From: Frigoribacterium sp. Leaf415
GTDB lineage: Bacteria > Actinomycetota > Actinomycetes > Actinomycetales > Microbacteriaceae
Assembly (NCBI RefSeq): GCF_001424645.1
Contig: NZ_LMQR01000001.1
Coordinates: 2,985,857-3,049,856, forward strand
DNA length: 64,000 nt
Reading direction: 5' to 3'
Both the position numbers and the translations under genes were made by a program. Below, one piece after another: positions 200-38,772 of the stretch. Every line of letters begins with the position of its first letter. Position 1 is the first letter of the stretch. The notes beneath the pieces were generated by a model. That model searched no databases and was not told the DNA's origin. It worked only from the letters and a program-made list of their open reading frames with translations.

Positions 200-240
200 G
201 GAGGCGCGGCACCGGTCTCGAGGACCGGCACCGCGCCTCC
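200..240. repeat. Inverted pair of the GGAGGCGCGG word, terminator-like
   Basis: GGAGGCGCGG at 200-209 and its complement at 231-240 face each other and are joined by a second inverted segment (CACCGGTC / GACCGGCA). The hairpin lies 23 bp beyond the stop of the minus-strand hydrolase. There is no T-run. The placement is that of a transcription terminator built from the dispersed word. Confidence 0.5.
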
Positions 241-262
241 TGCGGTCGCGTCGGGTTCCGCC

Positions 263-1099
263 CTACTTCTTCAGGAACTCGAGCACGACGCGGTTGAACT
301 CGTCGGCGTCACTGACGTTCGCACCGTGCGGTGCACCGGCGATCACGTGCAGCTCGGACCTGGCGATGGCCGCGTGCGTGCGCGCACCCGATCCCTCGTA
401 GGGCACGGTCGCGTCGCCGTCGCCGTGGATGACCAGCGTCGGCACGGTGACCTTGGTCAGGTCGTCACGGAAGTCCGTGTTCGCGAACGAGGCCATGGCC
501 TCGAGCGCAGCCGTCTTGTCAGCCTGCTTGGCGAGACGGAGGGCGTCCTGGCGGTCGGCCTCGGAGACCTTGAGCACGCCGTCGACCGAGAAGAAGCCGG
601 TCGTGAAGTCCTCGTAGAACGAGTCCTCGTCCTTGGTCAGGCCGGCCGTCATGTCGGCGGCGGCCTCCTTCGTGAGGGGGCCGTCGGGGTTGTCGTCGGT
701 CTTCATCAGGTACGGCGGCACGGCCGAGGCGAAGACGACGCTGTGCAGGCGCTCGGTGCCGTACTTGCTGAAGTAGCGGGCGACCTCGCCGCCACCCATC
801 GAGAAGCCGACGAGCGTGACGTCGTTCAGGTCGAGCTCGGTGAGGACGGTGTGCAGGTCCTCGGTCAGGTGGTCGTAGTCGTAGCCCGTCTTGGGCTTGT
901 CGCTGCGTCCGAAGCCGCGGCGGTCGTAGGTGACGACGCGGTAGCCGGCGTCGGCGAACGCGGGGACCTGCTTGCTCCAGGACTCGCCCGACAGGGGCCA
1001 GCCGTGGATCAGGACGACGGTGCGGCCCGTGCCGCCGGTGTCGTCGACGTGGAGGTTCGTGTCCTTGAAGAGGCCGTGGTGTGCGGTGATCTCGGTCAT
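263..1099 (-). CDS. Alpha/beta hydrolase, non-heme chloroperoxidase-like
   Basis: This 278-residue protein has the alpha/beta hydrolase layout of the cofactor-free haloperoxidase/esterase group. The oxyanion region is HGWPLSGESW, the nucleophile elbow is GFSMGG with Ser100, the acid Asp lies in VIHGDGDATVP and the catalytic His in AGAPHGAN near the C-terminus. Length is normal for the family. The ATG at 1099 is preferred over upstream in-frame starts because GAAGG precedes it and homology-like sequence starts just after it. No signal peptide, so it should be cytosolic. Substrate cannot be read from sequence; family members act on esters, lactones or peracids. It is monocistronic and followed by the inverted word pair at 200-240. 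Confidence 0.85.
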   Translation of the reverse strand: MTEITAHHGLFKDTNLHVDDTGGTGRTVVLIHGWPLSGESWSKQVPAFADAGYRVVTYDRRGFGRSDKPKTGYDYDHLTEDLHTVLTELDLNDVTLVGFSMGGGEVARYFSKYGTERLHSVVFASAVPPYLMKTDDNPDGPLTKEAAADMTAGLTKDEDSFYEDFTTGFFSVDGVLKVSEADRQDALRLAKQADKTAALEAMASFANTDFRDDLTKVTVPTLVIHGDGDATVPYEGSGARTHAAIARSELHVIAGAPHGANVSDADEFNRVVLEFLKK

Positions 1100-1227
1100 G
1101 GTCGGGTGCCTTCTCTCTCCCGCCGTCCTGGCGGGTCCGTCTCCGTTCGTAGTCCGCCACCCCGGGCGCCGCCTCGACGCGGAGGCATCTCGGAGGTGGG
1201 GGACAAGAGCGGGCACCCCTGGCATCG

Positions 1228-1244
1228 ATACCCCTAGGGGGTAT
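1228..1244. promoter_or_regulatory. CsoR-type copper operator before copZ-copA
   Basis: ATACCCCTAGGGGGTAT is a near-perfect palindrome of the kind bound by CsoR-family copper repressors. It ends 30 bp before the copZ start, where it would cover the promoter. A close relative, ATACCTCCGGGGGGTAT, lies at 48447-48463 before a DUF305 gene. No csoR gene is in the window, so the regulator would act from elsewhere. Confidence 0.75.
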
Positions 1245-1273
1245 AACCTGAGGGCCGATCGAGAGGACCGAGC

Positions 1274-1501
1274 ATGACCGACACCACCATCACCACCCTG
1301 CAGGTCGACGGCATGACCTGCGAGCACTGCGTCGCGAGCGTCACCGAAGAGCTCTCCGAGGTCGACGGCGTCGACTCGGTCGAGGTCGACCTCAACCCGG
1401 GAGGCGCGTCGACCGTCTCGGTCCAGGCCGACGCCACCGTCGAGCACGACCAGCTGCGGGCCGCCGTCGAAGAGGCCGGCTACCAGCTCTCCGCACGATG
1501 A
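1274..1501 (+). CDS. copZ: CopZ-like copper chaperone (HMA domain)
   Basis: A 75-residue single heavy-metal-associated domain. The metal loop is GMTCEHC at residues 13-19, with the two cysteines that bind Cu(I). Length and motif match CopZ chaperones that carry copper to CopA. AGAGGA precedes the ATG. The stop overlaps the copA start by 4 bases (ATGA), so the two are translationally coupled, and both lie behind the CsoR-type operator at 1228-1244. Confidence 0.92.
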
Positions 1502-3969
1502 CCACCGCAGGAGGCGCGGGCCGGCCGGGCGGGAGCGTCCCGCGGGGCACCGTCCCGCCTGCCGCCGTGCAGCCGGACGCCGTGCAACTCGACGCTGTGC
1601 AGTTGGACATCACCGGCATGACCTGCGCCTCCTGTGCGAACCGCATCGAGCGCAAGCTCAACAAGCTCCCCGGCGTCGAGGCGTCGGTCAACTACGCGAC
1701 CGAGAAGGCGCACGTGCGGGTCGCGGCCGGCGCGGTCGGCGACGCACGCGACGGCGACCCCGTCGTGCCCGACGTCGACGCGCTCATCGCCACGGTGGCC
1801 GCCGCGGGGTACGGGGCCACCGTGCCCGCGCCTCCTGCGTCCTCGGCCGGCGCGGCCGACGGCTCGGCCGACGCCGCCGCGGACGCCCGGGTCGCCGAGG
1901 TCGACGCCCTGCGCCACCGCACCCTCGTCAGCGCCGCCCTCGCCCTGCCCGTCGTCGTGCTCTCGATGGTGCCGGCCCTGCAGTTCACGAACTGGCAGTG
2001 GCTCGCGCTGACCCTCGCGGCACCGGTCGCCGTCTGGGGTGCCTGGCCCTTCCACCGCGCCGCCGCGGTGAACGCCCGCCACGGTGCCGCGACCATGGAC
2101 ACCCTCGTCAGCGTCGGCGTGATCGCCGCCTTCGCCTGGTCGCTCTGGGCGCTCTTCTTCGGCGACGCGGGGCGACCCGGCACGCACATGTCGTTCAGCC
2201 TGGTCGCGACCCACGGCGGCCCGACCGAGCTCTACCTCGAGGTCGCCGCGGCCGTGACGGTGTTCATCCTGCTCGGACGCTGGCTCGAGGCCCGCGCCAA
2301 GCGCCGCTCGGGCGAGGCCCTGCGCGCCCTGCTCGAGCTCGGCGCGAAGGAGGCCACCGTGCTGCGCGACGGTCAGGAGGCGCGGGTCGCCACCGCGGGT
2401 CTGGTACCCGGCGACCTCGTGGTCGTCCGTCCGGGCGAGGCCATCGCCAGCGACGCCCTCGTGCGCGAGGGCACCTCGGCGGTCGACCTGAGCATGCTCA
2501 CCGGCGAGTCGGTGCCGGTCGAGGTGGGCCCGGGAGACCGCGTGGTCGGTGCGACGCTCAACGTCGGCGGGCGCCTGCTCGTCGAGATCACCCGCGTCGG
2601 GGCCGACACCGAGCTCGCCCGCCTCGGACGTCTCGTCGAGGAGGCGCAGAGCGGCAAGGCCGAGGTGCAGCGGCTGGCGGACCGGGTGTCGGCCGTGTTC
2701 GTGCCGGTCGTGATCGGGCTGGCCGTGCTGACCTTCGTCGGCTGGCTCGCGTTCGGCGGGTTGGTCGAGGGGGCCGGGGCCGGGGCCGGGGCCGGTTCCG
2801 TGGCCGGCGGTTCCGGCGGCTTCTTCACCGGGTCGCTGCAGACCGCGTTCACCGCCGCCGTCGCCACCCTGATCATCGCCTGCCCGTGCGCGCTGGGGCT
2901 CGCGACGCCGACCGCACTGCTCGTCGGCACGGGCCGCGGCTCGCAGCTCGGCATCGTGATCCGCGGGCCGCAGGTGCTCGAGCGCACCCGCACGGTCGAC
3001 ACGATCGTCCTCGACAAGACCGGGACGGTGACGACGGGGCGGATGAGCGTGCGCGAGGTGGTCGTGGGCGATGCCGATGCCGATGCCGATGCCGGTGCCG
3101 TCGAGGTCGACGACGTCCTGGCCCGGGCCGCCGCCGTCGAGTCCGGCTCGGAGCATCCGGTCGCCCGGGTGATCGAGGCCGAGGCCGCCCGACGCGGGGT
3201 CGTCGTCCCGGCCGCCGACGGGTTCGCCGCCCACGCCGGGGCCGGCGTGCAGGCCCTCGTCGACGGCATGCTCGTGCTCGTCGGCCGCCCCGGGTGGTTG
3301 GCCGACGAGTGGTCGGTCACCGCGCCTCCCGAACTCGAGACCGCGTTCGTCGCGGCCGAGGCGACCGGTGCGACCCCCGTCGCCGTCGCCTGGGACGGTC
3401 GGGTGCGGGGAGTCGTCACCGTCGCCGACACCGTGAAGCCCAGTGCGCGTGAGGCCGTCGAGCGCTTCCGCGGCCTGGGTCTGACGCCCGTGCTGCTGAC
3501 CGGCGACAACGCGGGCGCGGCCCGGCACGTCGCGGCGCAGGTCGGCATCGCCGCGGCGGACGTGATCGCGCAGGCGACCCCGCAGCAGAAGGTGGAGGCG
3601 GTGGCCCGGTTGCAGGCGGAGGGTCGCGTCGTCGCCATGGTCGGCGACGGCGTCAACGACGCGGCGGCCCTCGCCACGGCCGACCTCGGCATCGCCCTCG
3701 GGACCGGCACGGACGCGGCGATCGCGGCGGGAGACCTGACCGTCGTCAGCGGCGAGCTCGCCGGGGTGGCCGACGCCATCCGCCTGGCACGGGCGACCCT
3801 CGGCACGATCAAGGGCAACCTGTTCTGGGCCTTCGCCTACAACGTCGCGGCGATCCCGGTCGCGATGCTCGGACTGCTCAACCCCGTGCTGGCCGGTGCG
3901 GCGATGGCGGCGTCGTCGGTGTTCGTCGTGACGAACAGCCTGCGCCTGCGGCGGTTCCGCGCCGGGTGA
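1498..3969 (+). CDS. copA: Copper-exporting P1B-type ATPase
   Basis: An 823-residue heavy-metal P-type ATPase. Visible in order: a low-complexity N-terminus, an HMA domain with GMTCASC at residues 40-46, transmembrane helices, the actuator TGES at 335-338, the CPC metal-transport motif at 462-464, the phosphorylation motif DKTGT at 506-510, an HP dipeptide in SGSEHPVA, and the hinge GDGVND at 716-721. The CPC motif and the copZ partner point to Cu(I) export. Two in-frame hexanucleotide tracts lengthen loops: GGGGCC repeats near 2769-2795 and GATGCC x4 at 3070-3093. The dispersed 10-mer occurs in the first codons and near 2386. Regulation is likely by CsoR through 1228-1244. Confidence 0.95.
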
Positions 3970-4082: not shown

Positions 4083-4115
4083 CACCGGCGGGCGGCCTGA
4101 CACGACCCCCGGGCA

Positions 4116-4875: not shown

Positions 4876-4926
4876 TTTCGGCACGGGAGGCGCAGGAGGC
4901 GGGAGCGCGGGAGGCGCGGCGCGCGG

Positions 4927-5163
4927 TCAGGGCAGCGCGCGGTACCAGCCGGCCACACGGGCACGGAGGCCGACGGGGTGGGACCGGCGCCGCGCCTCCT
5001 CGGGGACGTCGTCGACGACCGGGGCGAAACCGACGGTCGCGCACGAGGTGCAGACGAGCACGTGGCGGTGCACCGAGAGGGCCGTGCCGTAGAACGGGTT
5101 GGGCTCGCGACGGGTCGGCGCGGCGCACAACGTGCAGAGGGGCAGTTCGCGCGTGTCGTCCAT
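4927..5163 (-). CDS. Hypothetical protein with CxxC pairs
   Basis: A 78-residue protein with CTLC and CTSC pairs about 30 residues apart, suggesting a small zinc site (CTLCAAPTRREPNPFYG, then VLVCTSC). The C-terminus is basic. The ATG at 5163 is chosen; a GTG at 5175 is in frame. No clear ribosome site precedes either, so it may be leaderless. It converges on the zinc-ribbon gene. Function unknown. Confidence 0.6.
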   Translation of the reverse strand: MDDTRELPLCTLCAAPTRREPNPFYGTALSVHRHVLVCTSCATVGFAPVVDDVPEEARRRSHPVGLRARVAGWYRALP

Positions 5164-5399
5164 GAGGGTCACCACGACTCATGTTCGGCCACGAGAGGGC
5201 GGTCGGTTGTCCCCCAATTCGGGTGCCGGGGTACGCAGCCGCGTCCGGGACGGGCTCGACCCCGCACGACGCGGCCCCGACGCGGCACCGACTCGGCCCT
5301 GAATCGGCCCGACCCGGCGCCCGACCCGGCCCCGACTCGGCCCGATCGGCCCCCGGGGTCACGACCAGGAGGCGCGGGTCGGCTGCATAGGATCGTCGC

Positions 5400-6689
5400 G
5401 TGACGGACTCCCACGATCTCGGGCACGGGGCCCTCGGGCACGCCGGCGGCGGCTGGTCGCCGCTGGCCGGGAGCGCCCAGGCCGTGGTGCTCGACATCCT
5501 CGTGCACGGGGCCCGCCCGCGGACCGAGCTCGCCACCCGGCTCGGCCTGTCGGGCCCGAGCCTCACGCGCATCACCAAGCCCCTGCTCGAGAGCGGGCTG
5601 CTGGTCGAGCGACCCTCCCTCGCGCCGTCCGGCTCGGGTCGGCCCTCGGTCCCGCTCGACCTCGACCCGGACGCGCACCACTTCGTCGGCGTCAAGCTGA
5701 CCCGTGACCGCCTCTTCGTCGTCGTGACGGACCAGCGGGGCGGGGTGCTGGTCGAGCACGACGAACCCCTGCCCGACCCGTCGCCCGTCGCGGTCGTGGG
5801 CCAGGTCGGGGCGGTCGTGACCGCGGCCCGGGCCCGGGACGACCGCATCCGAGCGGTCGGCGTCACGGTCGGTGGACAGGTCGTCGACCGTGCGCGCGTG
5901 CGGCACGCACCGTTCCTCGGCTGGGACGACGTTCCCCTCGCCGACCTGCTGACCGCCTCGACCGGCCTGCCGACCTGGGTCGAGAACGACGTCCGCGCGC
6001 TGACCCAGGCCGAGCACTGGTTCGGCGAGGGGCGCGGGCTGCGGTCGTTCGCCCTCGTGACGATCGGCGCGGGCGTGGGGCTCGGCCTCGTCGCCGCGGG
6101 CGAGGTGCTCGGCGGGGCGCACTCGTCGGCGGGCAGCATCGGGCACCAGCGGATCGTGGTGCCGGTGCCGGTGCCGGTGCCGGTGCCGGCGTCAGCGCCC
6201 GCGCCCGTAGCCGTGCCGGTGCCCACCCCGGCGCCTGTGCCGGTGCGCACCCCCGCCGCAGCCGCCGCCGACGCGTCGGCCCCGACCTGCGACCTCGGTC
6301 ACCACGACTGCGCCGGAGCGTTCCTCACGGTCGCCGCGGTCGAGGCCGCCGCCGCCCGGGCCCTCGGCCGCCCGGTCGCCTACGACGACCTGCTCGCCCT
6401 CGCCGCCGACGGACACGAGGAGGCGCGGGTCGTCGTCGACACCGCCGCCGACGTCCTGGGGCAGCTGATCGCGGGCGTACTGAACGTGCTCGACCCCGAG
6501 GTGGTCCTGCTGTCGGGCGAGGGCGTGCGGCTCGCGACCGTCGGCGGAGCCGCGGTCGCTTCCGCGATCGAGTGCGGCACCCACCGGGCAGTTCCCCCGC
6601 CGAGACTCATCGTTCAGGAGTTCCGGTTCGACGAGTGGGCCCGAGGCGCCGCCGCCGTCGCGATCCAGATGCACGCGCTCGGACGCTGA
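5400..6689 (+). CDS. ROK-family transcriptional regulator
   Basis: A 429-residue protein with an N-terminal winged helix (VVLDILVHGARPRTELATRL ... SLTRITKPLLESGLLVE) followed by a ROK sugar-kinase-like domain (VGVTVGGQVV, VENDVRALTQAEHWFG, IGAGVGLGLVAAGE). Where the usual CxCGxxGC zinc motif of ROK proteins would lie, a Pro/Val/Ala-rich insert of about 45 residues appears, partly encoded by five GTGCCG repeats at 6159-6188, followed by CDLGHHDC. Zinc binding may therefore be altered. The GTG at 5400 follows TAGGAT by 7 bases, a leaderless promoter. It converges on the alpha-galactosidase gene and is the natural candidate to bind the palindrome at 9238-9260. Confidence 0.88.
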   Translation: MTDSHDLGHGALGHAGGGWSPLAGSAQAVVLDILVHGARPRTELATRLGLSGPSLTRITKPLLESGLLVERPSLAPSGSGRPSVPLDLDPDAHHFVGVKLTRDRLFVVVTDQRGGVLVEHDEPLPDPSPVAVVGQVGAVVTAARARDDRIRAVGVTVGGQVVDRARVRHAPFLGWDDVPLADLLTASTGLPTWVENDVRALTQAEHWFGEGRGLRSFALVTIGAGVGLGLVAAGEVLGGAHSSAGSIGHQRIVVPVPVPVPVPASAPAPVAVPVPTPAPVPVRTPAAAAADASAPTCDLGHHDCAGAFLTVAAVEAAAARALGRPVAYDDLLALAADGHEEARVVVDTAADVLGQLIAGVLNVLDPEVVLLSGEGVRLATVGGAAVASAIECGTHRAVPPPRLIVQEFRFDEWARGAAAVAIQMHALGR

Positions 6690-6714: not shown

Positions 6715-6780
6715 ACCCGCGCCTCCTGCCCGACCCGCGCCTCCTGCGCGACCCGCGCCTCCTGCGCGACCCGCGCCTCC
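6715..6780. repeat. Four tandem 18-bp units carrying the dispersed word
   Basis: ACCCGCGCCTCC begins at 6715, 6733, 6751 and 6769, an exact 18-bp period. Each unit contains CCGCGCCTCC, the complement of the GGAGGCGCGG word found throughout 1-38 kb. The array follows the ROK stop codon by 26 bp. Confidence 0.85.
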
Positions 6781-6874: not shown

Positions 6875-9217
6875 TCAGCCCTCGGCGGTGACCCGCAGCA
6901 GCACGACGCGCTCGGGGAACGACGACGGCGCCTGCAACCCGGCGACCGCCAGGGCGCGCCCGTCGAGCACGACCCCCGGGTAGGCGCCGCCCTCGTCCGC
7001 CGCACCCCACCACGGCGGCGGCGTCAGGCCGTGGTCCGGCGCCCCGACGGTCACGGGGGCCACCCGGTACCGCCGCTCGGGGTCGAGTCCGGGCAGCAGC
7101 ACGCGGCCGAGCGGTGCGACGTCGGATCGCCCGACGGAGGCGAGGAAGAACAGGGCCTCGCTCGCGTCGGTGGCGACCGAGCCGTAGACCAGCAGCGACG
7201 GGTCGGCCCCGTCGACCCGCACGACGTCGCCCGTGTGCATCAGGTGGCGGTGCTCTTTGTAGAGGGCGATCCACGCGGCGAGGTCGCGGTTCTCGGCGTC
7301 GGTCGCCCGGGCGAGGTCCCACTCGATGCCGAGGTGGCCGAACAGGGCGGTGCCGGCCCGGAACGACAGCTCGTGCCAGCGGCCGGTCGAGTGGCTGACG
7401 CCCGAGGCGATGTGTGAGCCGAGCAGCTCGGGGGGCAGCAGCTGCATCGTCCAGCGGTTCATCTGCTGCCGGTCGAGCGGGTCGATGCAATCGCTGACCC
7501 AGACGCGGTCGGTGCGCTCGAGCACGCCCAGGTCGACGCGGGCGCCGCCGGACGAGCACGACTCGATCTCGAGCCCGGGGAACCTCGCCTTGAGCTCGTC
7601 CATCAGCCGGTACGCCGCGAGGGTCTGCTCGTGGACGCCCGCGGCACCGGTCGGCCAGGTGCCGGCGTCGACGAGGTCGCGGTTGTGGTCCCACTTCAGG
7701 TAGGCGATGTCGTACTCGGTGAGGACCGCCGTCATCTGGCCGAGCACGTGCTCGTACGCCCCGGGGACGCCGAGGTTCAGCACCTGCTGGTCGCGCGACC
7801 GCGGGGGGAGGCGGTCACCGGTCTGCAGGAGCCACTCGGGGTGCTCCCGGGCGAGGTCGCTGTCCTCGTTGACCATCTCGGGCTCGAACCAGAGGCCGAA
7901 CTCCATGCCGAGGCCCGTGACGTGGTCGATCAGCGGTGACAGGCCGTCGGGCCAGACGTCGGCGTCGACCACCCAGTCGCCGAGGCCGGCGTGGTCGTCC
8001 CGTCGCCCCCGGAACCACCCGTCGTCGAGCACGTACCGCTCGACGCCGAGTGCGGCGGCCCGGTCGGCCAGGTCGCGGAGGCGGGCGAGGTCGTGGTCGA
8101 AGTAGACGGCCTCCCAGACGTTGATCGTCATCGGGCGCGGGCGGGTCGGGTGCTGCTCGCGGGAGCGCAGCCACCGGTGGAACCGTCGGGCCTGGTCGTC
8201 GAGGCCGTCGCCGTACGAGCCGAAGACCCACGGGCTGCGGTACGACTCGCCCACCTCGAGTCGCAGCTCGCCCGGCAGCAGCAGCTCGCCGCCGCCCAGC
8301 ACCTGCGCTCCGGTCGACAGGCGTTCGGCGTAGTGCCGGTGGTTGCCGCTGAACCCGACGTGCAGCCCCCAGACCTCGCCCGAGCCCGTGCCGAAGCCGA
8401 ACCCGGGCACGCCGACGCTCAGCACGGTGGCGGCGTCGGGGCCGGTGCGACCCTTGCGTCCCTCGCGCTCGTGCACGCCGACGACGAGCTCGCGGCGCTG
8501 CGGCGTGCGCTCCTTGCCCCAGCGGCCCGCGAAGTCGAGGATCTCGCGGGCCCGCGGCGGCACCGGCAGGGCCAGGTGCAGGTCGGTGAGCGTGTAGACG
8601 TCGGCCGCGGTGCTCGCGGCACCGGCCGCGGTGCTCGCCGGCCGGTCGTCGCCGGTGGCACCCCGGCCCTCGCGTCGGCCGCCCGCGCGTCGTCCGGCGA
8701 CGTTCGTCAGCTCGGCCCTGGTGCGGACGAGTCCGCTCGCCGTCAGCTCGATCTCGAGCACGATCGCCAGCCCGGCCACGTCGTCGTGCGCCTCGACCGT
8801 GACGAGGGCGGCTCCCGCGTCGACCAGCCCGGGACCCGAGGAGGCGCGGGTCGCCTCGGCCTCGCCCGTCACGTCGAGCGTGTCGACCGTGAACCGCGGC
8901 GACCAGTCGGCGCCGTCCGAGCGATGGCCGCCGACGCCGGGCTTGCCCGACCAGCCCGCGTGGTGCTCGGGCAGGATCGCCAGTCGCACCGGGTCGTCCA
9001 TCAGGTTGTTGACGTACGGCGGCACCGCGGCGGCGGCGAGGGACCGCACGTCGTCGAGCGTCGGCCGACCGAGGGCGGCGCCCCAGTGCAGGACCGCCGG
9101 CAGGCGCGCGTCGGTGACGTCGAGCAGCAGGCTGACGCCGGCGCTGCTCAGGTGGACGAACGCGTCGGGTGCCTCGGGCGGCGCGACGACGGTGGGCGAC
9201 GGGGTGGGGTGCGACAC
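6875..9217 (-). CDS. GH36 alpha-galactosidase
   Basis: A 780-residue glycoside hydrolase family 36 enzyme, expected to release terminal alpha-galactose from melibiose- or raffinose-type sugars. The N-terminal beta-sandwich is followed by the barrel with the nucleophile motif KWDHN (residues 508-512, Asp510) and the acid/base motif SDCID (575-579); ESCSSGGARVDLG precedes the latter as usual. No signal peptide, so it acts on imported sugar. A short Gly/Arg/Ala-rich insert (near residues 170-185) and two copies of the dispersed word are visible. The promoter region holds a clear palindromic operator at 9238-9260, probably bound by the neighbouring ROK regulator. Length and motifs are normal for actinobacterial GH36. 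Confidence 0.93.
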   Translation of the reverse strand: MSHPTPSPTVVAPPEAPDAFVHLSSAGVSLLLDVTDARLPAVLHWGAALGRPTLDDVRSLAAAAVPPYVNNLMDDPVRLAILPEHHAGWSGKPGVGGHRSDGADWSPRFTVDTLDVTGEAEATRASSGPGLVDAGAALVTVEAHDDVAGLAIVLEIELTASGLVRTRAELTNVAGRRAGGRREGRGATGDDRPASTAAGAASTAADVYTLTDLHLALPVPPRAREILDFAGRWGKERTPQRRELVVGVHEREGRKGRTGPDAATVLSVGVPGFGFGTGSGEVWGLHVGFSGNHRHYAERLSTGAQVLGGGELLLPGELRLEVGESYRSPWVFGSYGDGLDDQARRFHRWLRSREQHPTRPRPMTINVWEAVYFDHDLARLRDLADRAAALGVERYVLDDGWFRGRRDDHAGLGDWVVDADVWPDGLSPLIDHVTGLGMEFGLWFEPEMVNEDSDLAREHPEWLLQTGDRLPPRSRDQQVLNLGVPGAYEHVLGQMTAVLTEYDIAYLKWDHNRDLVDAGTWPTGAAGVHEQTLAAYRLMDELKARFPGLEIESCSSGGARVDLGVLERTDRVWVSDCIDPLDRQQMNRWTMQLLPPELLGSHIASGVSHSTGRWHELSFRAGTALFGHLGIEWDLARATDAENRDLAAWIALYKEHRHLMHTGDVVRVDGADPSLLVYGSVATDASEALFFLASVGRSDVAPLGRVLLPGLDPERRYRVAPVTVGAPDHGLTPPPWWGAADEGGAYPGVVLDGRALAVAGLQAPSSFPERVVLLRVTAEG

Positions 9218-10090: not shown

Positions 10091-10335
10091 GGTACGCGGG
10101 GACGCGCGGGTCAGGTCGGGTTCGGTACGGGGGAGGTGCGGAGTCGGTCCGCGGGGAGGCGCGGGTCAGGTCCGTGGGGACGTGCGGGTCAGGTACGCGG
10201 GGACGCGCGGGTCAGGTCGGGTTCGGTACGGGGGGAGGTGCGGAATCGGTCCACGGGGAGGCGCGGGGCAGGTCCGCGGGGACGTGCGGGTCAGGTCCGC
10301 GGGGACGTGCGGGCCAGGTCGGGTTCGGCACGCAG
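10091..10335. repeat. 101-bp tandem repeat, about 2.4 copies
   Basis: The segment beginning GGTACGCGGGGACGCG at 10091 recurs at 10192, a 101-bp period, with few differences, and a partial third copy follows. Within each unit, shorter blocks of the type CGGGGACGTGCGGGTCAGGTC repeat. Two units carry GGAGGCGCGG. No spacer pattern like a CRISPR array is present. Confidence 0.8.
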
Positions 10336-17191: not shown

Positions 17192-17277
17192 GGCCGCGCG
17201 GGCAGGCCGGCGCGACCAGGCCGCGCCGCGCCTCCTCGGTCGGGCTTCCCCGGCTGCGCCTCCCCGAGGTGGGCACG

Positions 17278-23003: not shown

Positions 23004-23039
23004 CCGACCTGGCCCGCGCCTCCTGGTCCCCCCGCCTGC

Positions 23040-23097: not shown

Positions 23098-23139
23098 ACG
23101 GTCCGTCCGAGGCCCGGACGGCAGGAGGCGCGGGTCGGC

Positions 23140-24624: not shown

Positions 24625-24685
24625 CGCGGGGCGTCCCCGGAGGCCCCCCGCGCCTCCTGCCGCCCTGCTCTCCCCCTCGCCCTGG

Positions 24686-26908: not shown

Positions 26909-26988
26909 CCGCGCCTCCTCGTGCTGTGGCCGGTGTCTCGCGACACGGCGGATCTTTTCGACGACGACCCATGGTGCCACGACCCGAA

Positions 26989-29390: not shown

Positions 29391-30316
29391 TGGCGAACAC
29401 CGCACTCGTCACCCCGGCCGCTTCGCCGGCCCCCACCCCGGGAGGCGCGGGTCGCGACGCCGACGCCGTCACCCGTCGTCGACGCGGTCGCGTCGGTCGG
29501 GAACGTCCGAACCGTCTCGTCACCGCGCTGCTCGTGCTCGGCACGATCACCGTGCTGATCCCGATCTACGTCACCATCACGATGTCGCTCAAGACGACGG
29601 CGCAGGCCGTCGACGGCAACGCGTTCAGCCTGCCGGCACCGATCGACTTCTCGAACTTCGCGACCGCCTGGCAGCTGACCGACTTCCCGCGGGCGTTCGG
29701 CATCTCGACCCTGGTCACGGCGGCGACCGTCGTCGGCACGGTGGTGCTCGCGTCGATGGCGTCGTACGCGATCTCGCGCAACTGGGACCGCAAGCTGTTC
29801 CGCTTCTCGTTCTTCTACCTGCTCGCCGCGATGTTCCTGCCGTTCCCGGTGGTCGCGCTGTCGCAGATCAAGCTGACCGGCATCGTCGGCCTCGACAACC
29901 CCGCCGGCGTCGCCTTGCTGCACGTCATGTTCCAGCTGTCGTTCTCGATCCTGCTGTTCACGGCGTTCCTGCGGTCGTTGCCCGAAGAGCTGGAAGAGAG
30001 CGCGCGGCTCGACGGCGCCACCACGTGGCAGGTCTTCTGGCGCCTGGTCTTCCCGCTGCTCGCTCCGATGAGCGCCACGGTCGGCATCTTCGCCTTCCTG
30101 GCCTCGTGGAACGACTTCGCGATGCCGTCGCTGATCACGGCCGACCCGTCGCTGCAGACCCTGCCGGTGTTGCAACAGATCTTCCAGACGCAGTTCAGCA
30201 ACAACTACAACGTCGCCTTCGCCTCGTACCTCATGGCGATGGCCCCCGCGATCGTCGTCTACCTCTTCACCCAGCGCTGGGTGATGGCGGGCGTGACGCA
30301 GGGCGCGATCAAGTAG
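29390..30316 (+). CDS. ABC sugar permease 2
   Basis: A 308-residue MalG-class permease. A basic N-terminal tail containing the dispersed word (encoding GGAGR) precedes six helices. The EAA loop is EESARLDGATTWQVFWRLVFPLL. The start shares one base with the previous stop (TGATG). It forms the membrane channel with permease 1. Confidence 0.92.
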   Translation: MANTALVTPAASPAPTPGGAGRDADAVTRRRRGRVGRERPNRLVTALLVLGTITVLIPIYVTITMSLKTTAQAVDGNAFSLPAPIDFSNFATAWQLTDFPRAFGISTLVTAATVVGTVVLASMASYAISRNWDRKLFRFSFFYLLAAMFLPFPVVALSQIKLTGIVGLDNPAGVALLHVMFQLSFSILLFTAFLRSLPEELEESARLDGATTWQVFWRLVFPLLAPMSATVGIFAFLASWNDFAMPSLITADPSLQTLPVLQQIFQTQFSNNYNVAFASYLMAMAPAIVVYLFTQRWVMAGVTQGAIK

Positions 30317-30392
30317 GCGTCCGTCGGGGGCGCGACCCGCGCCTCCTGACCTTCCGGACAACCCACCACCACCGAGAGGACCCCGCTCCACG

Positions 30393-32084: not shown

Positions 32085-32282
32085 GGTCGGCCGTTCCCGG
32101 GGGTGGGCTGACGCCGGTCTGGTTGCGCGGCTGGGGTCGGTCGTCCCCGGGGCGGTGCCCCGCGCCTCCTGGATGCTGAGCGGGCGTGTTCGTGGTCGGC
32201 GGGCGTCTTCGGACGCCCGCCCGCCGCGGACCCGCCCGCTTCTGCGTGCGGGTCCGCCGCCGGCCGGGAGGTTCGGTGCCGG

Positions 32283-32669: not shown

Positions 32670-32937
32670 GGCCCGAGGGTAGGGGGTGCCGCCCGCCGGA
32701 CGGAACCCCCGCGAGGTGGGGTGACCGGGGGCCGCCCGTCCGTCGTTCCGGGTGTGGCGGGCCCGTCGGGTGGGCGGTGGCGTCATCGGCATCACGGCGA
32801 GCGACCCCGGTCAGGAGGCGCGGTGCCGGTCGACCTCGAAGGGTACAGCTCCTGAAAGTTCGCCTCCACCCCTGGTCAGCGGGCGGCTCCGATCGTAAGG
32901 TGGGTCGGTCCGCCCGAACGAGGAGAACCGTGAGTCG

Positions 32938-34206
32938 ATGCGCCGTCCGTCCCAGGAAGCGCTCATGACCGACCCCTCGAACACCCCCGAGCCCGCGATG
33001 CCGGCCGAGCAGACGCCCCGGGCCGACCTGCCGCTGACGCGCCGCGAGGCCCGCGCGCTCGAGCGCGCTGTTGCCGCGGCCGCCGCCGGCGCATCCGCGA
33101 GTGGCTCCGCCGCTGATGCTGCTCCCGCCGCCTCCGCACCTTCGTCCGCCGCGCCTCCCGCCGACCCCGCGATGAACCCGGTTTCGAACGATGCACCCAC
33201 GAGCAACAGGGTTCATGGTTCGGAAGTGGGTGCACCGGCGCCCGTGGGTGTCGCGGCTGACCCCGCGACGGCTGAGCCCGCGACGGCTGACCCCGCGACG
33301 GCCGACCCCGTGGCGGCTGAGCCCGCGACGCGCGTCGCTCGTCGTTCGCGGCCCTCGGTGCCGGCTCTCGTGCGTCGGACCCGCGACGGCGGTCGCCCGA
33401 GCCAGAGCCCGCGGGGCACGTCCGGCCGGTCGCGGCTGCGCGCCGTCTCGTCGCGCGTCCGCGCGGCGACCTTGCCCGTGCTCGGTGTCTGCGCCGTCAT
33501 GCTCTTCTTCACCTCGAACCTCACCCCGGCCTCGGCCAGCGACCTGGGCGGGTCGAACATCCCGACCGCCGGTGCCGCTCCGATGCCGACCCAGACCCTC
33601 GCGGCGTCGCTCGTCGTGTTGACCGTGTCCGACCGCGACGCCTTCGGGGTGACCGACGCACCGCCGCCGCCTCCGCCGCCCGAGCCCGAGCCCGTCGTCA
33701 CCTCGAAGAACGTCGCGGGGTCGACGAACTCGAACCGCGCCTCCTCGGGGGCCGGCACCATCGTCAATTCGGGCACCGGCGACATCCGCTGGCCGTTCCC
33801 GGGTTCGGTCGTCCTCAGCTCGGGCTTCGGACCGCGCTCGGCACCGTGCGCCGCGTGCTCGAGCATGCACATGGGCCTCGACATGACGCCCGGCGGCGGG
33901 ACCCCGATCGGCGCCGCGGCGGCGGGTGTGGTGCGGACCTCGGGCATGCACGGCCAGTTCGGTCAGTACGCCGTGATCGACCACGTGATCGACGGCCAGC
34001 GGGTCAGCACCCTCTACGCGCACATGCAGATCGGGTCGAGCCCGCTCGTGGCCGGTCAGACGGTCCAGGTGGGCGAGCTGGTCGGCAAGGTCGGCCGCAG
34101 TGGAGTCGCAACCGGCGAGCACCTGCACTTCGAGGTGCTGCTGGGCGGCTCCACCCAGGTCGACCCCAAGGCCTGGCTCGACGCGAACGCCGGTCGCACC
34201 CTCTAG
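32938..34206 (+). CDS. M23 family peptidase, membrane-anchored
   Basis: A 422-residue LytM-type metallopeptidase. A long Ala/Pro/Glu-rich cytoplasmic N-terminus (to about residue 170) precedes one transmembrane helix (TLPVLGVCAVMLFFTS), a proline-rich linker (PPPPPPPEPEP) and the M23 domain, with zinc ligands His311 and Asp315 (HMGLD) and HLH at 395-397. It is expected to cut peptidoglycan cross-bridges, or to activate other hydrolases. ATG at 32938; ATG at 32965 with AGGAAG upstream is an alternative. Two interleaved inverted repeats are read through in the disordered part (33172-33235), and a PATADPATAE repeat follows. Confidence 0.88.
   Translation: MRRPSQEALMTDPSNTPEPAMPAEQTPRADLPLTRREARALERAVAAAAAGASASGSAADAAPAASAPSSAAPPADPAMNPVSNDAPTSNRVHGSEVGAPAPVGVAADPATAEPATADPATADPVAAEPATRVARRSRPSVPALVRRTRDGGRPSQSPRGTSGRSRLRAVSSRVRAATLPVLGVCAVMLFFTSNLTPASASDLGGSNIPTAGAAPMPTQTLAASLVVLTVSDRDAFGVTDAPPPPPPPEPEPVVTSKNVAGSTNSNRASSGAGTIVNSGTGDIRWPFPGSVVLSSGFGPRSAPCAACSSMHMGLDMTPGGGTPIGAAAAGVVRTSGMHGQFGQYAVIDHVIDGQRVSTLYAHMQIGSSPLVAGQTVQVGELVGKVGRSGVATGEHLHFEVLLGGSTQVDPKAWLDANAGRTL
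33172..33235. repeat. Interleaved inverted repeats inside the M23 gene
   Basis: ATGAACCC (33172) pairs with GGGTTCAT (33209), and TGCACCCAC (33192) pairs with GTGGGTGCA (33226). The two pairs cross, as in a pseudoknot, instead of nesting. An 8-base spacer (GAGCAACA) lies in the middle, as in the 10411 palindrome family, whose GGTTCG motif also appears. It looks like a rearranged member of that family, translated in frame. Confidence 0.5.
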
Positions 34207-34643: not shown

Positions 34644-35734
34644 GCGGTCAGCTCGGCCTTGCGGCCCGCGTCGGCGAACGACGCCTCGACCGAGTTCGTC
34701 GCCAGCAGGGCCAGCGCGTCGTCGTCCAGCCCGAGCACGTCGCGCAGCGCCTGGTAGTTGTCGCCCACGTAGCCGCCGAAGTAGGCGGGGTCGTCGCTGT
34801 TGACCGTGACGAGCAGCCCGGCCTCGAGCATGCGCGGCAACGGGTGCTCGGCCAGGTCGGACACGACCGCGAGCCGCAGGTTCGACAAGGGGCAGACCGT
34901 GAGCGGCACCCGGTCGGCGACCAGTCGTGCGACGAGGGCGTCGTCCTCGAGGCTGCGCACGCCGTGGTCGACGCGTTCGACGTGCAGCAGGTCGAGGGCG
35001 TCGGTGACGTACGACGGCGGCCCCTCTTCGCCGGCGTGGGCGACGACGTGCAGCCCGAGCGCGCGGGCGCGGTCGAAGACGCGGGCGAACGCGGCCGGCG
35101 GGAACCCCACCTCGGACGAGTCGAGCCCCACCCCGATCAGATCGGAGGCGCGGTGCGCGACGGACTCGAGCGTCGCGGCCGCGTCACCCACCGGCAGGTG
35201 TCGCAGGAAGCAGAGGATGAGCCCGCCCGTGATGCCGAACCGCTCACGAGCCTCGCCGAGCGCCTGGGTCAGCCCGTCGATCACCTCGTCGACGTCGACG
35301 TCGCGCGAGGTGTGCGCCTGGGGGTCGAAGAACATCTCGACGTGACGCAGCCCCTGGGCGTGGGCGCGTTCGAGGTAGGCCCACGCGAGGTCGCGGAAGT
35401 CCTGGGCGGTCTGCAGCACGGCCGTGCACGCGTAGTACAGGTCGAGGAACTCCTGCAGCGAGCCGAACGAGTACGCGGCACGCAGCTCGTCGACCGAGGC
35501 GAAGGGCAGGTCGACGTCGTTGCGGTCGGCGAGGGCGAAGACGAGCTCGGGTTCGAGCGTTCCCTCGACGTGCAGGTGCAGCTCGGCCGTCGGCGGGGTC
35601 GCGAGCACGGTGGCCGAGAGGGGCGGACCCGAGAGAGGCGAGCCCGAGAGGTCGCTGCTCGTCAGTGTCGTGCCCCGGAGGGGCGTGCCGGGCGCGGGGG
35701 CCGCGGTCGTCGGGGAGGTGTCGATCGCCGTCAT
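34604..35734 (-). CDS. Adenosine/adenine deaminase family protein
   Basis: A 376-residue purine deaminase. Zinc and catalytic residues appear in HLHVEG, VVAHAGEEGPPSYV (catalytic Glu), VDHGVRS and the metal Asp in VNSDDPAYFGGYV. The DPAYFGGYV form is common in adenine deaminases of this family, so adenine may be preferred over adenosine; this is inference. The first 45 residues are a Thr/Ser/Pro-rich extension. The ATG follows TACGGT by 7 bases. Product inosine or hypoxanthine feeds purine salvage. Confidence 0.88.
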   Translation of the reverse strand: MTAIDTSPTTAAPAPGTPLRGTTLTSSDLSGSPLSGPPLSATVLATPPTAELHLHVEGTLEPELVFALADRNDVDLPFASVDELRAAYSFGSLQEFLDLYYACTAVLQTAQDFRDLAWAYLERAHAQGLRHVEMFFDPQAHTSRDVDVDEVIDGLTQALGEARERFGITGGLILCFLRHLPVGDAAATLESVAHRASDLIGVGLDSSEVGFPPAAFARVFDRARALGLHVVAHAGEEGPPSYVTDALDLLHVERVDHGVRSLEDDALVARLVADRVPLTVCPLSNLRLAVVSDLAEHPLPRMLEAGLLVTVNSDDPAYFGGYVGDNYQALRDVLGLDDDALALLATNSVEASFADAGRKAELTAEVRAWREARRTA

Positions 35735-35845
35735 CGGGCCACCGTAGCGGCAGCGTGCCTCCCGACGAAGCTCCGTGCACGATCGTTCACCGTCCCGTCA
35801 CCCGGCGAGAGCCTGGGGACGAGACGACGAGGCTCCGGGACGAGA

Positions 35846-35942
35846 CCAGGAGGCGCGGGCCGGCTCCTCGAGGACGCCACCCGCGCCTCCTGCTCGGTCG
35901 CCGAGGAGGCGCGGTGCGCGACGACCGCGCCCCGCGCCTCCT
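35846..35942. repeat. Cluster of four dispersed words as two inverted pairs
   Basis: GGAGGCGCGG at about 35849 faces its complement at about 35882, and a second copy at about 35904 faces a complement at about 35933. Two adjacent hairpins result between the deaminase promoter and the 3' end of the next minus-strand gene. Confidence 0.8.
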
Positions 35943-35950
35943 GCAGGTCG

Positions 35951-36637: not shown

Positions 36638-36800
36638 GCCGTCGATCGTAGGGCCGACCGCCGTCACCGCCGCCCGCCGCCCGCCGCCCACCGTCACCAC
36701 CGCCGACCGCCGCCCACCCGCCGCCGCCCCGCGCACGGGCCCACGGCAGCAAGACGACACCTGTCGCCCACCGTCCAGCCCCCGGGCGTAGCCTGCGCCC

Positions 36801-37844
36801 ATGAAGGCACTCCAGTACACCCAGGTCGGTCAGCACCCCGAAGTCGTCGAGATCGAGAAGCCGTCGCCCGGCCCCGGGCAGGTGCTGCTCAAGGTCACGG
36901 CCGCCGGCGTCTGCCACTCCGACGAGTACGTCATGAGCCTCAGCGAAGAGGACTACACGGCACAGGGCTATCCGCTGCCGCTCACGCTCGGTCACGAGGG
37001 GGCGGGCGTCGTGGCCGAGCTCGGCGAGGGCGTCGAGCACCTGCAGGTCGGTGACGCCGTCGCCGTCTACGGTCCGTGGGGCTGTGGCCGCTGCCACCAG
37101 TGCGCCCAGGGCAAGGAGAACTACTGCGTCAACGCCGCCGCCGAGGGCATCAAGCCTCCCGGGCTCGGCGCCCCCGGGTCGATGGCCGAGTACATGATCG
37201 TCGACGACCCCCGCCACCTCGTGCCGCTCGGCGACCTCGACCCGGTCGCGAACGTGTCGCTCACCGACGCCGGTCTCACGCCGTACCACGCGATCAAGAC
37301 CTCGCTGCCGAAGCTCGGCGCCGGCACCTACGCCGTCGTCATCGGCACCGGAGGCCTCGGGCACGTCGGCATCCAGATCCTGCGGGCGCTCTCGGGTGCG
37401 CAGATCATCGCGCTCGACGTCACCGACGAGAAGCTCGAGCTGGCGAAGCACGTCGGTGCGCACCACACGGTGATCAGCGACGAGCACGCCGCCGACGCGA
37501 TCCGCGAGATCACCGGAGGCCTCGGCGTCCAGGCCGTCTTCGACTTCGTCGGGGCGAAGCCGACCATGGCCACGGCGGTCGCGGTCGCCGCGGCGGACGC
37601 CGACGTGACCATCGTCGGCATCGGTGGCGGCACCGTCGAGCTCGGCTTCGGCACGATCGGCTACGACGTCGCCGTGCGCATCCCCTACTGGGGCAGCCGC
37701 AGCGAACTGATCGAGGTCCTCGACCTCGCCCGTGCCGGTCAGGTCGAGGTCGCGACGCAGCGCTACTCGCTCGACGACGGCCCGAAGGCCTACGAGGCGC
37801 TCGCCGCGGGCACCGTTCGCGGCCGCGCCGTCATCGTCCCGTAG
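36801..37844 (+). CDS. Zinc-dependent alcohol dehydrogenase (AdhP-like)
   Basis: A 347-residue medium-chain dehydrogenase. Catalytic zinc ligands: Cys in GVCHSDEY and the GHEGAG His/Glu. The structural zinc site is CGRCHQCAQGKENYC. The Rossmann motif is GTGGLGHVG. An Asp (ALDVTDEKLELAK) at the end of strand 2 suggests NAD. Acts on primary alcohols or aldehydes. ATG at 36801 after TAGCCT, so leaderless. Divergent from the maltokinase-cap gene. An inverted word pair follows the stop. Confidence 0.93.
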   Translation: MKALQYTQVGQHPEVVEIEKPSPGPGQVLLKVTAAGVCHSDEYVMSLSEEDYTAQGYPLPLTLGHEGAGVVAELGEGVEHLQVGDAVAVYGPWGCGRCHQCAQGKENYCVNAAAEGIKPPGLGAPGSMAEYMIVDDPRHLVPLGDLDPVANVSLTDAGLTPYHAIKTSLPKLGAGTYAVVIGTGGLGHVGIQILRALSGAQIIALDVTDEKLELAKHVGAHHTVISDEHAADAIREITGGLGVQAVFDFVGAKPTMATAVAVAAADADVTIVGIGGGTVELGFGTIGYDVAVRIPYWGSRSELIEVLDLARAGQVEVATQRYSLDDGPKAYEALAAGTVRGRAVIVP

Positions 37845-37855
37845 CCGAACCACCC

Positions 37856-37895
37856 CAGGAGGCGCGGTGTCGGACTTCCGGCACCGCGCCTCCTG
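37856..37895 (+). terminator. Hairpin made of an inverted word pair
   Basis: AGGAGGCGCGGTG at 37857-37869 and CACCGCGCCTCCT at 37882-37894 are exact complements around 12 bases. It starts 12 bp after the alcohol dehydrogenase stop. This is the cleanest example of the dispersed word used as an inverted, terminator-like pair. No T-run follows. Confidence 0.65.
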
Positions 37896-38205
37896 CGGTC
37901 CCCGGTACACGCACCCCGTCGACCCGACGTCCCGGTGGAGGGGTCAAACTGGCAATCGACCTGCCCTTTCGACGCATCCCCCCGCGGAGGCGAGAGGGGT
38001 GAGATAGTTGACACAAGCAGACATCCCGGTGGCTCCACCGGCCCTGCATGCAGATACCGTCCCCTGCCTGTGCCGCCTCTCGCGGCATCTCAAGTGCCTC
38101 CTCCCGACGGTCGTCCCCCTGCGTGCATGCCGAGGTCGACGGCCCTCGCGCTCAGGAGCCGGGACACCAGCCGACGACCCACGGGTCGCCCGGAAGGACC
38201 GCGTC
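37896..38205. other. Leader region before the SipW module
   Basis: About 310 bp without a gene. It holds a TTGACA hexamer at 38008-38013 and a small perfect palindrome, CCGGTGGCTCCACCGG (38026-38041), followed by a pyrimidine-rich stretch. A long 5' leader with the hairpin is possible; I recognise no riboswitch family. Confidence 0.4.
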
Positions 38206-38772
38206 ATGAAGACCATCGTCAAGGGCACCATCGCCACCGCCGCCGGCGTCACCCTCCTCCTCGGAGGCGCGGGCACGTTCGCGCTCTGGAACACCAGCGC
38301 CGAGACGGCCGGCGGCACCATCGTCTCGGGTGGGCTCGAGGTCGAACCGAGCGCCCGGGCCGCGACCTGGACCGTCAACGGAGGCGCCCCGCAGGAATCG
38401 ATCGCCGGCTACCCGATCGTGCCGGGCGACGTGGTCGTCTACTCGCGCGACATGACCGTCACCGCCCACGGCGACGGCCTGAACGCCAGCTTCAGCCTCG
38501 ACCCCTCGTCGATCGAGCCCAGCTCGAGCTCGGCGTCGGACATCGCGCTCGCCGACTACCTCTCGTCGACCGCGCAGCTCACCGCCACGGGTGACGGCAT
38601 CACGACGACCCCCACCGCCGTGACGGTCACCGGTCGGGACGGCCTCGAGGAGGACGTCACCGTCGCGGTCACGATCGAGTTCCCGAAGAGCTCGACCGTC
38701 GGTTTCGAGAACGCCACCCAGCTCGGTTCGGTCGACCTCGGGGCCGTCGCCGTGACCCTCACCCAGATCTAG
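38206..38772 (+). CDS. SipW-type exported protein (alternate signal peptide)
   Basis: A 188-residue exported protein. The N-terminus MKTIVKGTIATAAGVTLLLGGAG then TFALWNTSAE is the alternate-type signal peptide recognised by SipW-like peptidases and seen in TasA/camelysin-like proteins. The mature part is a Ser/Thr-rich beta domain. GGAAGGA lies 7 bases before the ATG. First gene of a tightly packed four-gene unit ending in the signal peptidase at 40603. Likely secreted or forming a surface fibre; the fibre idea is inference from the family. Confidence 0.85.
   Translation: MKTIVKGTIATAAGVTLLLGGAGTFALWNTSAETAGGTIVSGGLEVEPSARAATWTVNGGAPQESIAGYPIVPGDVVVYSRDMTVTAHGDGLNASFSLDPSSIEPSSSSASDIALADYLSSTAQLTATGDGITTTPTAVTVTGRDGLEEDVTVAVTIEFPKSSTVGFENATQLGSVDLGAVAVTLTQI

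What the first reader, a model, noticed from the sequence alone, without database searches (positions are those of the whole stretch)
200..38275. Dispersed 10-mer GGAGGCGCGG with an uptake-signal-like layout
By eye I count about 46 exact copies of GGAGGCGCGG or its complement between 200 and 38.3 kb, often extended to AGGAGGCGCGGGTC. With about 72% GC I estimate roughly one copy expected by chance on both strands. Copies occur in genes in several frames (giving QEARV, EEARV, TRASS, GGAG), in gaps, as a tandem (6715-6780) and as inverted pairs after stop codons (200-240, 35846-35942, 37856-37895). That combination is known for DNA uptake sequences of Neisseria and Pasteurellaceae. Other options are a Chi-like recombination word or a word spread because it doubles as a Shine-Dalgarno (azlD and the ROK gene at 26908 use it so).
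Basis: partly seen in the sequence, partly recalled or inferred. Interest (0 to 1): 0.85.

Follow-up and report, generated by a model that had tools for sequence, protein, structure and literature searches.

The report
DNA-uptake-like word in Gram-positive Frigoribacterium
A Gram-positive bacterium and its sister genus carry hundreds to well over a thousand copies of a short DNA word that looks like a self-recognition tag for taking up DNA, a trick known mainly from two Gram-negative families.

Summary
GGAGGCGCGG occurs 50 times in the window (1.6 expected) and 1725 times in the 3.42 Mb genome, against 67 for the reversed word. The organism is a Frigoribacterium (Microbacteriaceae); all 16 held genomes of that genus have 842-1725 copies. 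Curtobacterium carries the same core with flanking letters that shift between species; Frondihabitans, sister of Frigoribacterium, over-uses another word, CAGGATCC. Copies are five times denser outside genes, form hairpins after stop codons, also sit in genes, show no replication-strand bias, are rarely Shine-Dalgarno-placed (2 of 99), survive between species two to three times better than near-words, and are missing from 28 kb holding an acquired-looking island. All 13 Frigoribacterium and Curtobacterium genomes tested have a type IV pilus cluster and comEC, as do many genera without the word. Best reading: an independently evolved DNA uptake sequence with dialects, in a monoderm lineage. Preferential uptake and a receptor are not shown. 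Ten searches of an open-access library listed no earlier report.

The parts
195..246 (.). inverted pair of words (200-209 +, 231-240 -), hairpin after the stop of the gene at 263-1099 (-)
   Evidence: 18-bp stem, -44 kcal/mol, z -7.4
1510..1519 (+). word copy
1826..1835 (-). word copy
2376..2385 (+). word copy
3320..3329 (-). word copy
4910..4919 (+). word copy
4990..4999 (-). word copy
5368..5377 (+). word copy
6419..6428 (+). word copy
6717..6780 (-). tandem of four words at 18-bp steps between convergent called genes (5400-6689 + and 6875-9217 -)
8840..8849 (+). word copy
9311..9320 (+). word copy
10155..10164 (+). word copy
10257..10266 (+). word copy
10770..10779 (+). word copy
11100..11109 (-). 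word copy
11298..11307 (+). word copy
12317..12326 (+). word copy
12368..12377 (-). word copy
17226..17235 (-). word copy
17496..17505 (+). word copy
18251..18260 (+). word copy
18615..18624 (-). word copy
20005..20014 (+). word copy
20109..20118 (-). word copy
20940..20949 (-). word copy
23014..23023 (-). word copy
23124..23133 (+). word copy
24648..24657 (-). word copy
25015..25024 (+). word copy
25550..25559 (+). word copy
26909..26918 (-). word copy, abutting the called start of the gene at 25547-26908 (-)
29441..29450 (+). word copy
30337..30346 (-). word copy
32160..32169 (-). word copy
32814..32823 (+). word copy
33149..33158 (-). word copy
33735..33744 (-). word copy
35144..35153 (+). 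word copy inside the adenosine deaminase gene (34604-35734 -)
35845..35895 (.). inverted pair (35849-35858 +, 35881-35890 -), hairpin downstream of the gene at 35951-36700 (-)
   Evidence: -41.1 kcal/mol, z -4.9
35900..35945 (.). second inverted pair (35905-35914 +, 35932-35941 -), hairpin after the stop of the gene at 35951-36700 (-)
   Evidence: -35.3 kcal/mol, z -4.3
37852..37900 (.). inverted pair (37858-37867 +, 37884-37893 -), hairpin after the stop of the gene at 36801-37844 (+)
   Evidence: -44.7 kcal/mol, z -8.4
38263..38272 (+). last word copy before the word-free stretch
38273..64000 (.). word-free stretch (continues to window-equivalent 66210) containing a lower-GC, acquired-looking island with a resolvase, SLAC1, CrcB and an enolase

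Best explanation
The word is a DNA uptake sequence: a self-recognition tag for natural transformation, evolved independently of those in Neisseriaceae and Pasteurellaceae, in the Gram-positive clade Frigoribacterium + Frondihabitans + Curtobacterium. Inferred working: a pilin of the type IVa pilus encoded beside rpoC binds the word on free DNA; the PilT-like ATPase retracts the pilus; ComEA and ComEC carry one strand in; recombination replaces the resident allele. Because fragments with the word are taken up more often, the word accumulates by molecular drive wherever genes tolerate it (gaps, gene ends where an inverted pair can double as a terminator, permissive codons), and the recognised letters drift with the receptor and give species dialects. 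Shown here: abundance, placement, balanced orientation, conservation, dialect-like variation, absence from one island, presence of the genes. Inferred: binding, uptake bias, receptor, terminator action, molecular drive, and that the Frondihabitans word belongs to the same system.
For: (1) 1725 copies against 67 for the reversed word; 123 in genes against 13.5 in synonymous-codon shuffles; 16 of 16 Frigoribacterium enriched. (2) 1.62/kb outside against 0.31/kb inside called genes; convergent gaps 2.99/kb; 14 of 31 neighbouring pairs within 60 bp face each other; hairpins. (3) Single copies dominate: 259 of 315 core copies have no partner arm within 70 bp. (4) Against five congeners, 80 of 111 noncoding and 73 of 84 coding comparisons keep the word, against 37 of 155 and 288 of 670 for 10-mers one or two letters away; sites one letter off here are exact words in the relative in 6 of 91 comparisons, against 206 of 14461 for control words. 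(5) Letter before the core in C(T/G/A)GGAGGCNCG: own genome T 39, G 192, A 722; F. endophyticum T 39, G 306, A 171; Curtobacterium from T-rich (C. pusillum DE0370: 907, 326, 62) to G-rich (G257: 141, 880, 45); the five comparison genomes (G028, two Frondihabitans, one Leifsonia, one Labedella) sum to 76-225. (6) The three genera form one clade in a PilB+PilC FastTree tree of 30 loci (local support 0.995), and two Frondihabitans genomes have CAGGATCC 1187 and 1431 times against 4-366 in 42 other genomes. (7) PilB-type ATPase in 13 of 13 Frigoribacterium/Curtobacterium genomes tested; pil cluster in the same 13; comEA-comEC in the own genome, comEC in all 13. (8) No word in a 27.9 kb stretch with an island. 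(9) No orientation bias.
Against: No uptake or transformation data; no paper in the library holds both Frigoribacterium and natural transformation. No receptor: no pilin stands out by charge, and pilin divergence follows dialect only weakly (Spearman PilV 0.30, PilX 0.29, but also PilM 0.24 and PilD 0.20; PilB 0.13, PilA 0.12, PilW 0.09, PilT 0.01, PilC -0.01; no correction for descent). The pilus and comEC are not diagnostic: 30 of the 47 other genomes (one of them Frondihabitans) have a PilB-type ATPase scoring like that of the 13, and all 40 genomes have comEC. Dialects are graded, not discrete. Word density follows GC (Spearman 0.63 over 21 stretches). Exact words lost to one mismatch in the relative (14) outnumber one-mismatch sites that are exact there (6). 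The Frondihabitans word is weaker, shorter and not clearly concentrated outside genes. The island is a single case.
Confidence: 0.72

Rival explanations
1. A recombination or chromosome-organisation word (Chi-like or KOPS-like) read by a cytoplasmic helicase or translocase.
For: Abundant, conserved in position and spread over the chromosome.
Against: 125-127 of 245 copies run with replication, depending on where the terminus is set (origin placed by a parS cluster); Chi and KOPS are strand-biased (recalled). Enrichment in convergent gaps as inverted pairs and species variants are not expected of Chi. The genome was not searched for RecBCD or AdnAB.
Confidence: 0.08
2. A family of intergenic hairpins (intrinsic terminators or REP-like mobile palindromes) whose arms are the word.
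For: Inverted pairs with strong hairpins at gene ends; in Curtobacterium many copies are such hairpins.
Against: 259 of 315 core copies in the own genome sample have no partner arm; 123 of 229 words lie inside called genes and are kept there in 73 of 84 comparisons. No Y1 transposase (RAYT) in 20 of 20 genomes. Terminators need no shared species-specific arm (inference).
Confidence: 0.08
3. A highly iterated word maintained by some other DNA-binding or DNA-modifying protein (compare HIP1 of cyanobacteria, recalled), unrelated to uptake.
For: Any sequence-specific agent with biased conversion could give this pattern; no receptor is identified here.
Against: HIP1 is palindromic (recalled), this word is not. 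Facing pairs at gene ends, dialect-like variants and absence from an island match uptake sequences. Methyltransferases were not searched for.
Confidence: 0.1
4. A by-product of base composition, codon use or ribosome binding sites.
For: GC about 71% in the sampled stretches and word density follows GC; the word contains GGAGG and is often preceded by A.
Against: Reversed word 67 against 1725; codon shuffles 13.5 against 123; 2 of 99 in Shine-Dalgarno place; nearly all other genera in the family sample are at background.
Confidence: 0.02

Closest known systems
DNA uptake sequence (DUS) of Neisseriaceae and its dialects (PMC3630211; abstract and 12 of 29 matching passages seen)
   Same: Non-palindromic short word in large numbers, in gaps as inverted pairs associated with terminators and inside genes, with dialects around an invariant core, in bacteria with type IV pili.
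   Different: Unrelated sequence; monoderm Actinobacteria; about 0.5 exact copies per kb here; graded rather than discrete dialects; receptor unknown; uptake not shown.
Uptake signal sequence (USS) of Pasteurellaceae (AAGTGCGGT and ACAAGCGGT; passage in PMC3630211)
   Same: Similar copy number (recalled: about 1500 in Haemophilus influenzae) and a core with weaker flanking positions (recalled).
   Different: Different sequence; USS flanks are AT-rich (recalled); different phylum.
Competence of Micrococcus luteus (passage in PMC6370729)
   Same: Actinobacterium with comEA/comEC and pilus-dependent transformation.
   Different: Uses Tad/Flp pili; the passage names no uptake word.
Methylation-dependent uptake in Campylobacter (recalled, no call)
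   Same: Self-DNA preference through a frequent short site.
   Different: Recognition depends on methylation of a degenerate site (recalled); nothing of the kind was tested here.

Membership tests
DNA uptake sequence (DUS/USS) | Hundreds to thousands of copies, far above expectation | tested here: met
   1725 against 67 reversed; 842-1725 in 16 of 16 Frigoribacterium
DNA uptake sequence (DUS/USS) | Both strands equally, no replication bias | tested here: met
   867/858; 125-127 against 118-120
DNA uptake sequence (DUS/USS) | Enriched in gaps, inverted pairs at gene ends, yet also in genes in tolerated frames | tested here: met
   gene calls are from a home-made caller
DNA uptake sequence (DUS/USS) | Sites maintained between related species | tested here: met
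   (window and pilus locus only)
DNA uptake sequence (DUS/USS) | Dialects in related species around a shared core | tested here: met
   variation is graded
DNA uptake sequence (DUS/USS) | Missing from newly acquired DNA | tested here: met
   one island only: no copy in 27.9 kb
DNA uptake sequence (DUS/USS) | Type IV pilus and ComEA/ComEC present | tested here: met
   not diagnostic, also in many genomes without the word
DNA uptake sequence (DUS/USS) | A receptor that binds the word (ComP in Neisseria) | tested here: inconclusive
   no pilin singled out
DNA uptake sequence (DUS/USS) | DNA with the word is taken up preferentially | not testable with these tools
   needs an uptake assay
Chi-like word | Orientation biased with replication (recalled) | tested here: not met
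Chi-like word | Stimulates recombination by a RecBCD/AddAB-type enzyme (recalled) | not testable with these tools
   no functional data; the enzymes were not searched for
REP/BIME elements | Y1 (RAYT) transposase in the genome (recalled; true of many REP families) | tested here: not met
   0 of 20 genomes; the search rang in 5 of 14 control genomes
REP/BIME elements | Unit is a whole palindrome | tested here: not met
   259 of 315 core copies single in the own genome sample
Shine-Dalgarno word | Just upstream of start codons | tested here: not met
   2 of 99
HIP1-like iterated word | Palindromic word (recalled) | tested here: not met
   GGAGGCGCGG is not its own reverse complement
HIP1-like iterated word | Tied to a DNA methyltransferase (recalled) | not tested
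   no search made

The most novel reading that the evidence does not exclude
A third, independently evolved system of self-DNA recognition for transformation, in monoderm Actinobacteria: one ancestral uptake word in the ancestor of Curtobacterium, Frondihabitans and Frigoribacterium has diverged into genus words (C[T/G]GGAGGCNCG, CAGGATCC, CAGGAGGCGCGG) and graded species dialects, read by a fast-evolving pilin of a type IVa pilus and acting as a barrier to gene flow between species.
Probability: 0.6. Interest if true: 0.92.

Novelty: new variant of a known kind. Interest (0 to 1): 0.82.

Why it matters
A passage of PMC3630211 (2013) calls the requirement for uptake words unique to Neisseria and the Pasteurellaceae, both with an outer membrane. 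An independent case in Gram-positive bacteria would show that self-tagging is a repeatable outcome of pilus-driven transformation, would give a second set of dialects on which to test molecular drive against selection, would predict that these bacteria are naturally transformable (useful for their genetics), and would offer a handle on how species boundaries are kept in Curtobacterium and Frigoribacterium.

Tried and rejected
Shine-Dalgarno and composition: rejected. Chi/KOPS: no strand bias. REP/RAYT: no Y1 transposase in 20 genomes. G055 (genus g55) has 399 exact words against 142 reversed, but its core copies show no conserved flanks and it groups outside the clade in the pilus tree; left unexplained, not counted as a member. 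Receptor search by net charge and by distance correlation gave no answer; no structure prediction was run. A de novo search for words in other pilus-bearing genera (Leifsonia, Labedella, Cryobacterium, Mycetocola, Cellulomonas, Actinotalea; 42-104 kb each) gave nothing like the positive controls, but four of these six sets hold only loci around the pilus genes, so weak words could be missed. In one search, 58 of the 76 loci were tabulated (short, most MAG and distant ones dropped). In some searches, 23 of the 24 Curtobacterium loci were used (the uncultured MAG was dropped, and so was one locus named only Microbacteriaceae), with three unnamed Curtobacterium genomes. One search also compared four further strains at the pilus locus only (words intact in 20 of 24 comparisons); these are not in the pooled counts. 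Gene calls come from a home-made codon-usage caller, so gap and gene counts are approximate. Site comparisons count the same own site once per relative and are not independent. In one search the PilT query found its best match in the PilB gene in two genomes (G110, G167) and PilO was not found in G035, where the fetched stretch ends; one search shows a second ATPase beside PilB in G110 and G167. In one search a fifth stretch, taken by mistake inside a gene of L102 as a Curtobacterium example, folded like its shuffles and is not used.


Full report
What was claimed.

Check. There are 50 exact copies in the window, all before 38273, with 1.59 expected. The window lies in a 3.42 Mb genome in four contigs; the word occurs 867 + 858 times there and the reversed word 37 + 30 times. 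Within 415 genes called by my own codon-usage caller in 464 kb (the window and 20 evenly spaced stretches), 123 words were found against 13.5 (sd 3.5) after synonymous-codon shuffling within genes; outside genes 106 were found against 1.5-2.7 (Markov order 3-4) or 15.5 (order 5, inflated by the word). So it is real and not codon use.

Who has it. In 299 genomes of the family two genera stand out as whole groups: g1 (own, 7 of 7 drawn, 842-1725 copies) and g32 (6 of 6 drawn, 216-688); one genome of g55 (G055) is raised without the other features. All 16 Frigoribacterium held have 842-1725 exact words.

Where it sits. Word density is 1.62/kb outside and 0.31/kb inside called genes; 2.99/kb in convergent gaps, 1.42 in divergent and 1.13 in co-directional ones. 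Of 31 neighbouring pairs at 60 bp or less, 14 face each other (9 of them 26-32 bp apart), 5 face apart and 12 are tandem. The four facing pairs in the window that lie at gene ends fold to -35 to -45 kcal/mol, beyond all 200 shuffles each. Still, 259 of 315 copies of the nine-letter core in 483 kb have no partner arm within 70 bp, and in genes the word is used on both strands (62 same, 61 opposite), never in the gene-strand frame that would put AGG in a codon (0 of 123). Only 2 of 99 words between genes are in Shine-Dalgarno position.

Strand. A parS-like cluster at 2.774-2.776 Mb marks the origin region (parS recalled). With the terminus set anywhere from 0.9 to 1.3 Mb, 125-127 words run with and 118-120 against replication. 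Chi and KOPS are strand-biased (recalled), so they do not fit.

Maintenance. I aligned the window and the pilus locus with five congeners (noncoding identity 83-88%, coding 90-94%). Words stayed intact in 80 of 111 noncoding and 73 of 84 coding comparisons; 10-mers one or two letters from the word stayed intact in 37 of 155 and 288 of 670. Sites one letter off in this genome are exact words in the relative in 6 of 91 comparisons, against 206 of 14461 for shuffled control words; the reverse, an exact word here that is one letter off there, occurs 14 times. The same site is counted once per relative, so the comparisons are not independent, but the difference is two- to threefold and present in genes and gaps alike.

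Dialects. In Curtobacterium the same core stands in other surroundings: GACGG(C/A)CTGGAGGCGCG in the C. flaccumfaciens genome G105, GGACGGGAGGCGCG in G257, CCGGGAGGC(C/G)CG in G295. Counts over whole genomes of CTGGAGGCNCG / CGGGAGGCNCG / CAGGAGGCNCG show the letter before the core shifting: own genome 39/192/722, F. endophyticum 39/306/171, C. pusillum DE0370 907/326/62, C. salicis 150/913/119, G257 141/880/45 (41 genomes). The 26 Curtobacterium genomes sum to 556-1295; the five comparison genomes of other genera sum to 76-225. The shift is a graded series, not a set of fixed words, and the A form is near background in many Curtobacterium genomes.

A third genus. A PilB+PilC tree of 30 loci (FastTree) puts Curtobacterium, Frondihabitans and Frigoribacterium in one clade (local support 0.995), with Frondihabitans and Frigoribacterium as sisters (0.986). 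The two Frondihabitans genomes lack the word, but CAGGATCC is over-represented there: 1431 and 1187 copies, against 4 to 366 in 42 other genomes (the 45th handle, G004, gave the same counts as G331 and is taken as the same genome). It shares the letters CAGGA with the Frigoribacterium word. It is less tied to gaps, so I count it as a possible, not proven, dialect.

Machinery. Next to rpoC the own genome has PilB, a PilT-like ATPase, PilC, a major prepilin, three minor-pilin-like proteins, a prepilin peptidase, PilM, PilN and PilO (gene names by order and similarity). The prepilin methylation motif is found by profile in the major pilin and in the PilW-like protein here, and in the PilV-like gene of several relatives. 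The PilB-type ATPase is in 13 of 13 Frigoribacterium/Curtobacterium genomes tested, and equally in 30 of 47 others; comEC is in 40 of 40 genomes of the family tested; comEA stands directly before comEC in the own genome. The minor pilins diverge fastest (33-77% identity within Frigoribacterium for the PilV/W/X-like proteins, against 86-92% for PilB and PilC). Distance in the PilV- and PilX-like proteins follows dialect distance weakly (0.30, 0.29), but PilM (0.24) and PilD (0.20) come close, and the PilW-like protein does not (0.09); PilB, PilC and PilT lie at -0.01 to 0.13. This is a lead only. Net charge singles out no pilin.

The word-free stretch. From 38273 to window-equivalent 66210 there is no word, against about 14 expected at the genome average (1725 in 3.42 Mb). 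From 42 to 62 kb the GC is 0.62-0.70 per 2 kb, and there are a resolvase, a SLAC1 channel, CrcB and an enolase. Newly acquired DNA without the word is what uptake-word genomes show (recalled; PMC7371117, seen in a search listing only, is titled as using this to find integrative elements).

Mechanism. The best account is an uptake word recognised outside the cell by a pilin and spread by transformation and recombination. Placement, orientation, maintenance and variants are shown; recognition, uptake bias and the receptor are inferred. That many pilus-bearing genera lack the word is not a contradiction: within Neisseriaceae five genomes were reported without an obvious uptake word (passage of PMC3630211).

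Literature. In the passages seen, PMC3630211 (12 of 29 places), PMC6370729 and PMC12236230 speak of uptake words for Neisseria, the first also for Pasteurellaceae, and of none for Actinobacteria. Ten searches of the open library listed no report of an uptake word in Microbacteriaceae; two returned nothing and several lists were capped at 10-20 of up to 378 papers, so this is weak evidence of absence. Subscription papers and preprints were not searched.

Noticed in passing
window 41570-62000: Lower-GC island: resolvase (41570-42136), SBF transporter, Na/Ca exchanger-like protein, SLAC1 channel (51274-52422), CrcB (53446-53982) and an enolase (54162-55331), a set that looks like fluoride tolerance (function recalled).
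   Followed up: partly
L198:9620-13102: comEC runs without a stop into a holA-like part (DNA polymerase III delta), giving one 1160-residue open frame in this genome.
   Followed up: partly
G331, G332 (Frondihabitans), whole genomes: CAGGATCC occurs 1431 and 1187 times, against 366 or fewer in 42 other genomes of the family sample; possible uptake word of that genus.
   Followed up: partly
G000, whole genome: Only 4 copies of CAGGATCC in 3.42 Mb, against 58 in F. endophyticum; perhaps avoidance of GGATCC by a restriction system.
   Followed up: no
G055, whole genome and L033, L047-L051, L080: The exact word is raised (399 against 142 reversed) but has no conserved flanks.
   Followed up: partly
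L035, L052-L054 (G178): Repeated 12-mers such as AGGTCGAGACCA and TCGAGCAGACCA, another dispersed repeat in a different genus.
   Followed up: no
L021, L023 (Frigoribacterium G035, G167): Runs of ten or more G or C within 20 kb (10 and 37 overlapping 10-mers); possible phase-variation tracts.
   Followed up: no
L019 (G000:C1:2773664-2776301): Four parS-like palindromes GTTTCACGTGAAAC, taken as marking the origin region.
   Followed up: yes
window 6717-6780: An 18-bp unit with the word repeated four times between convergent genes; looks like local amplification.
   Followed up: no
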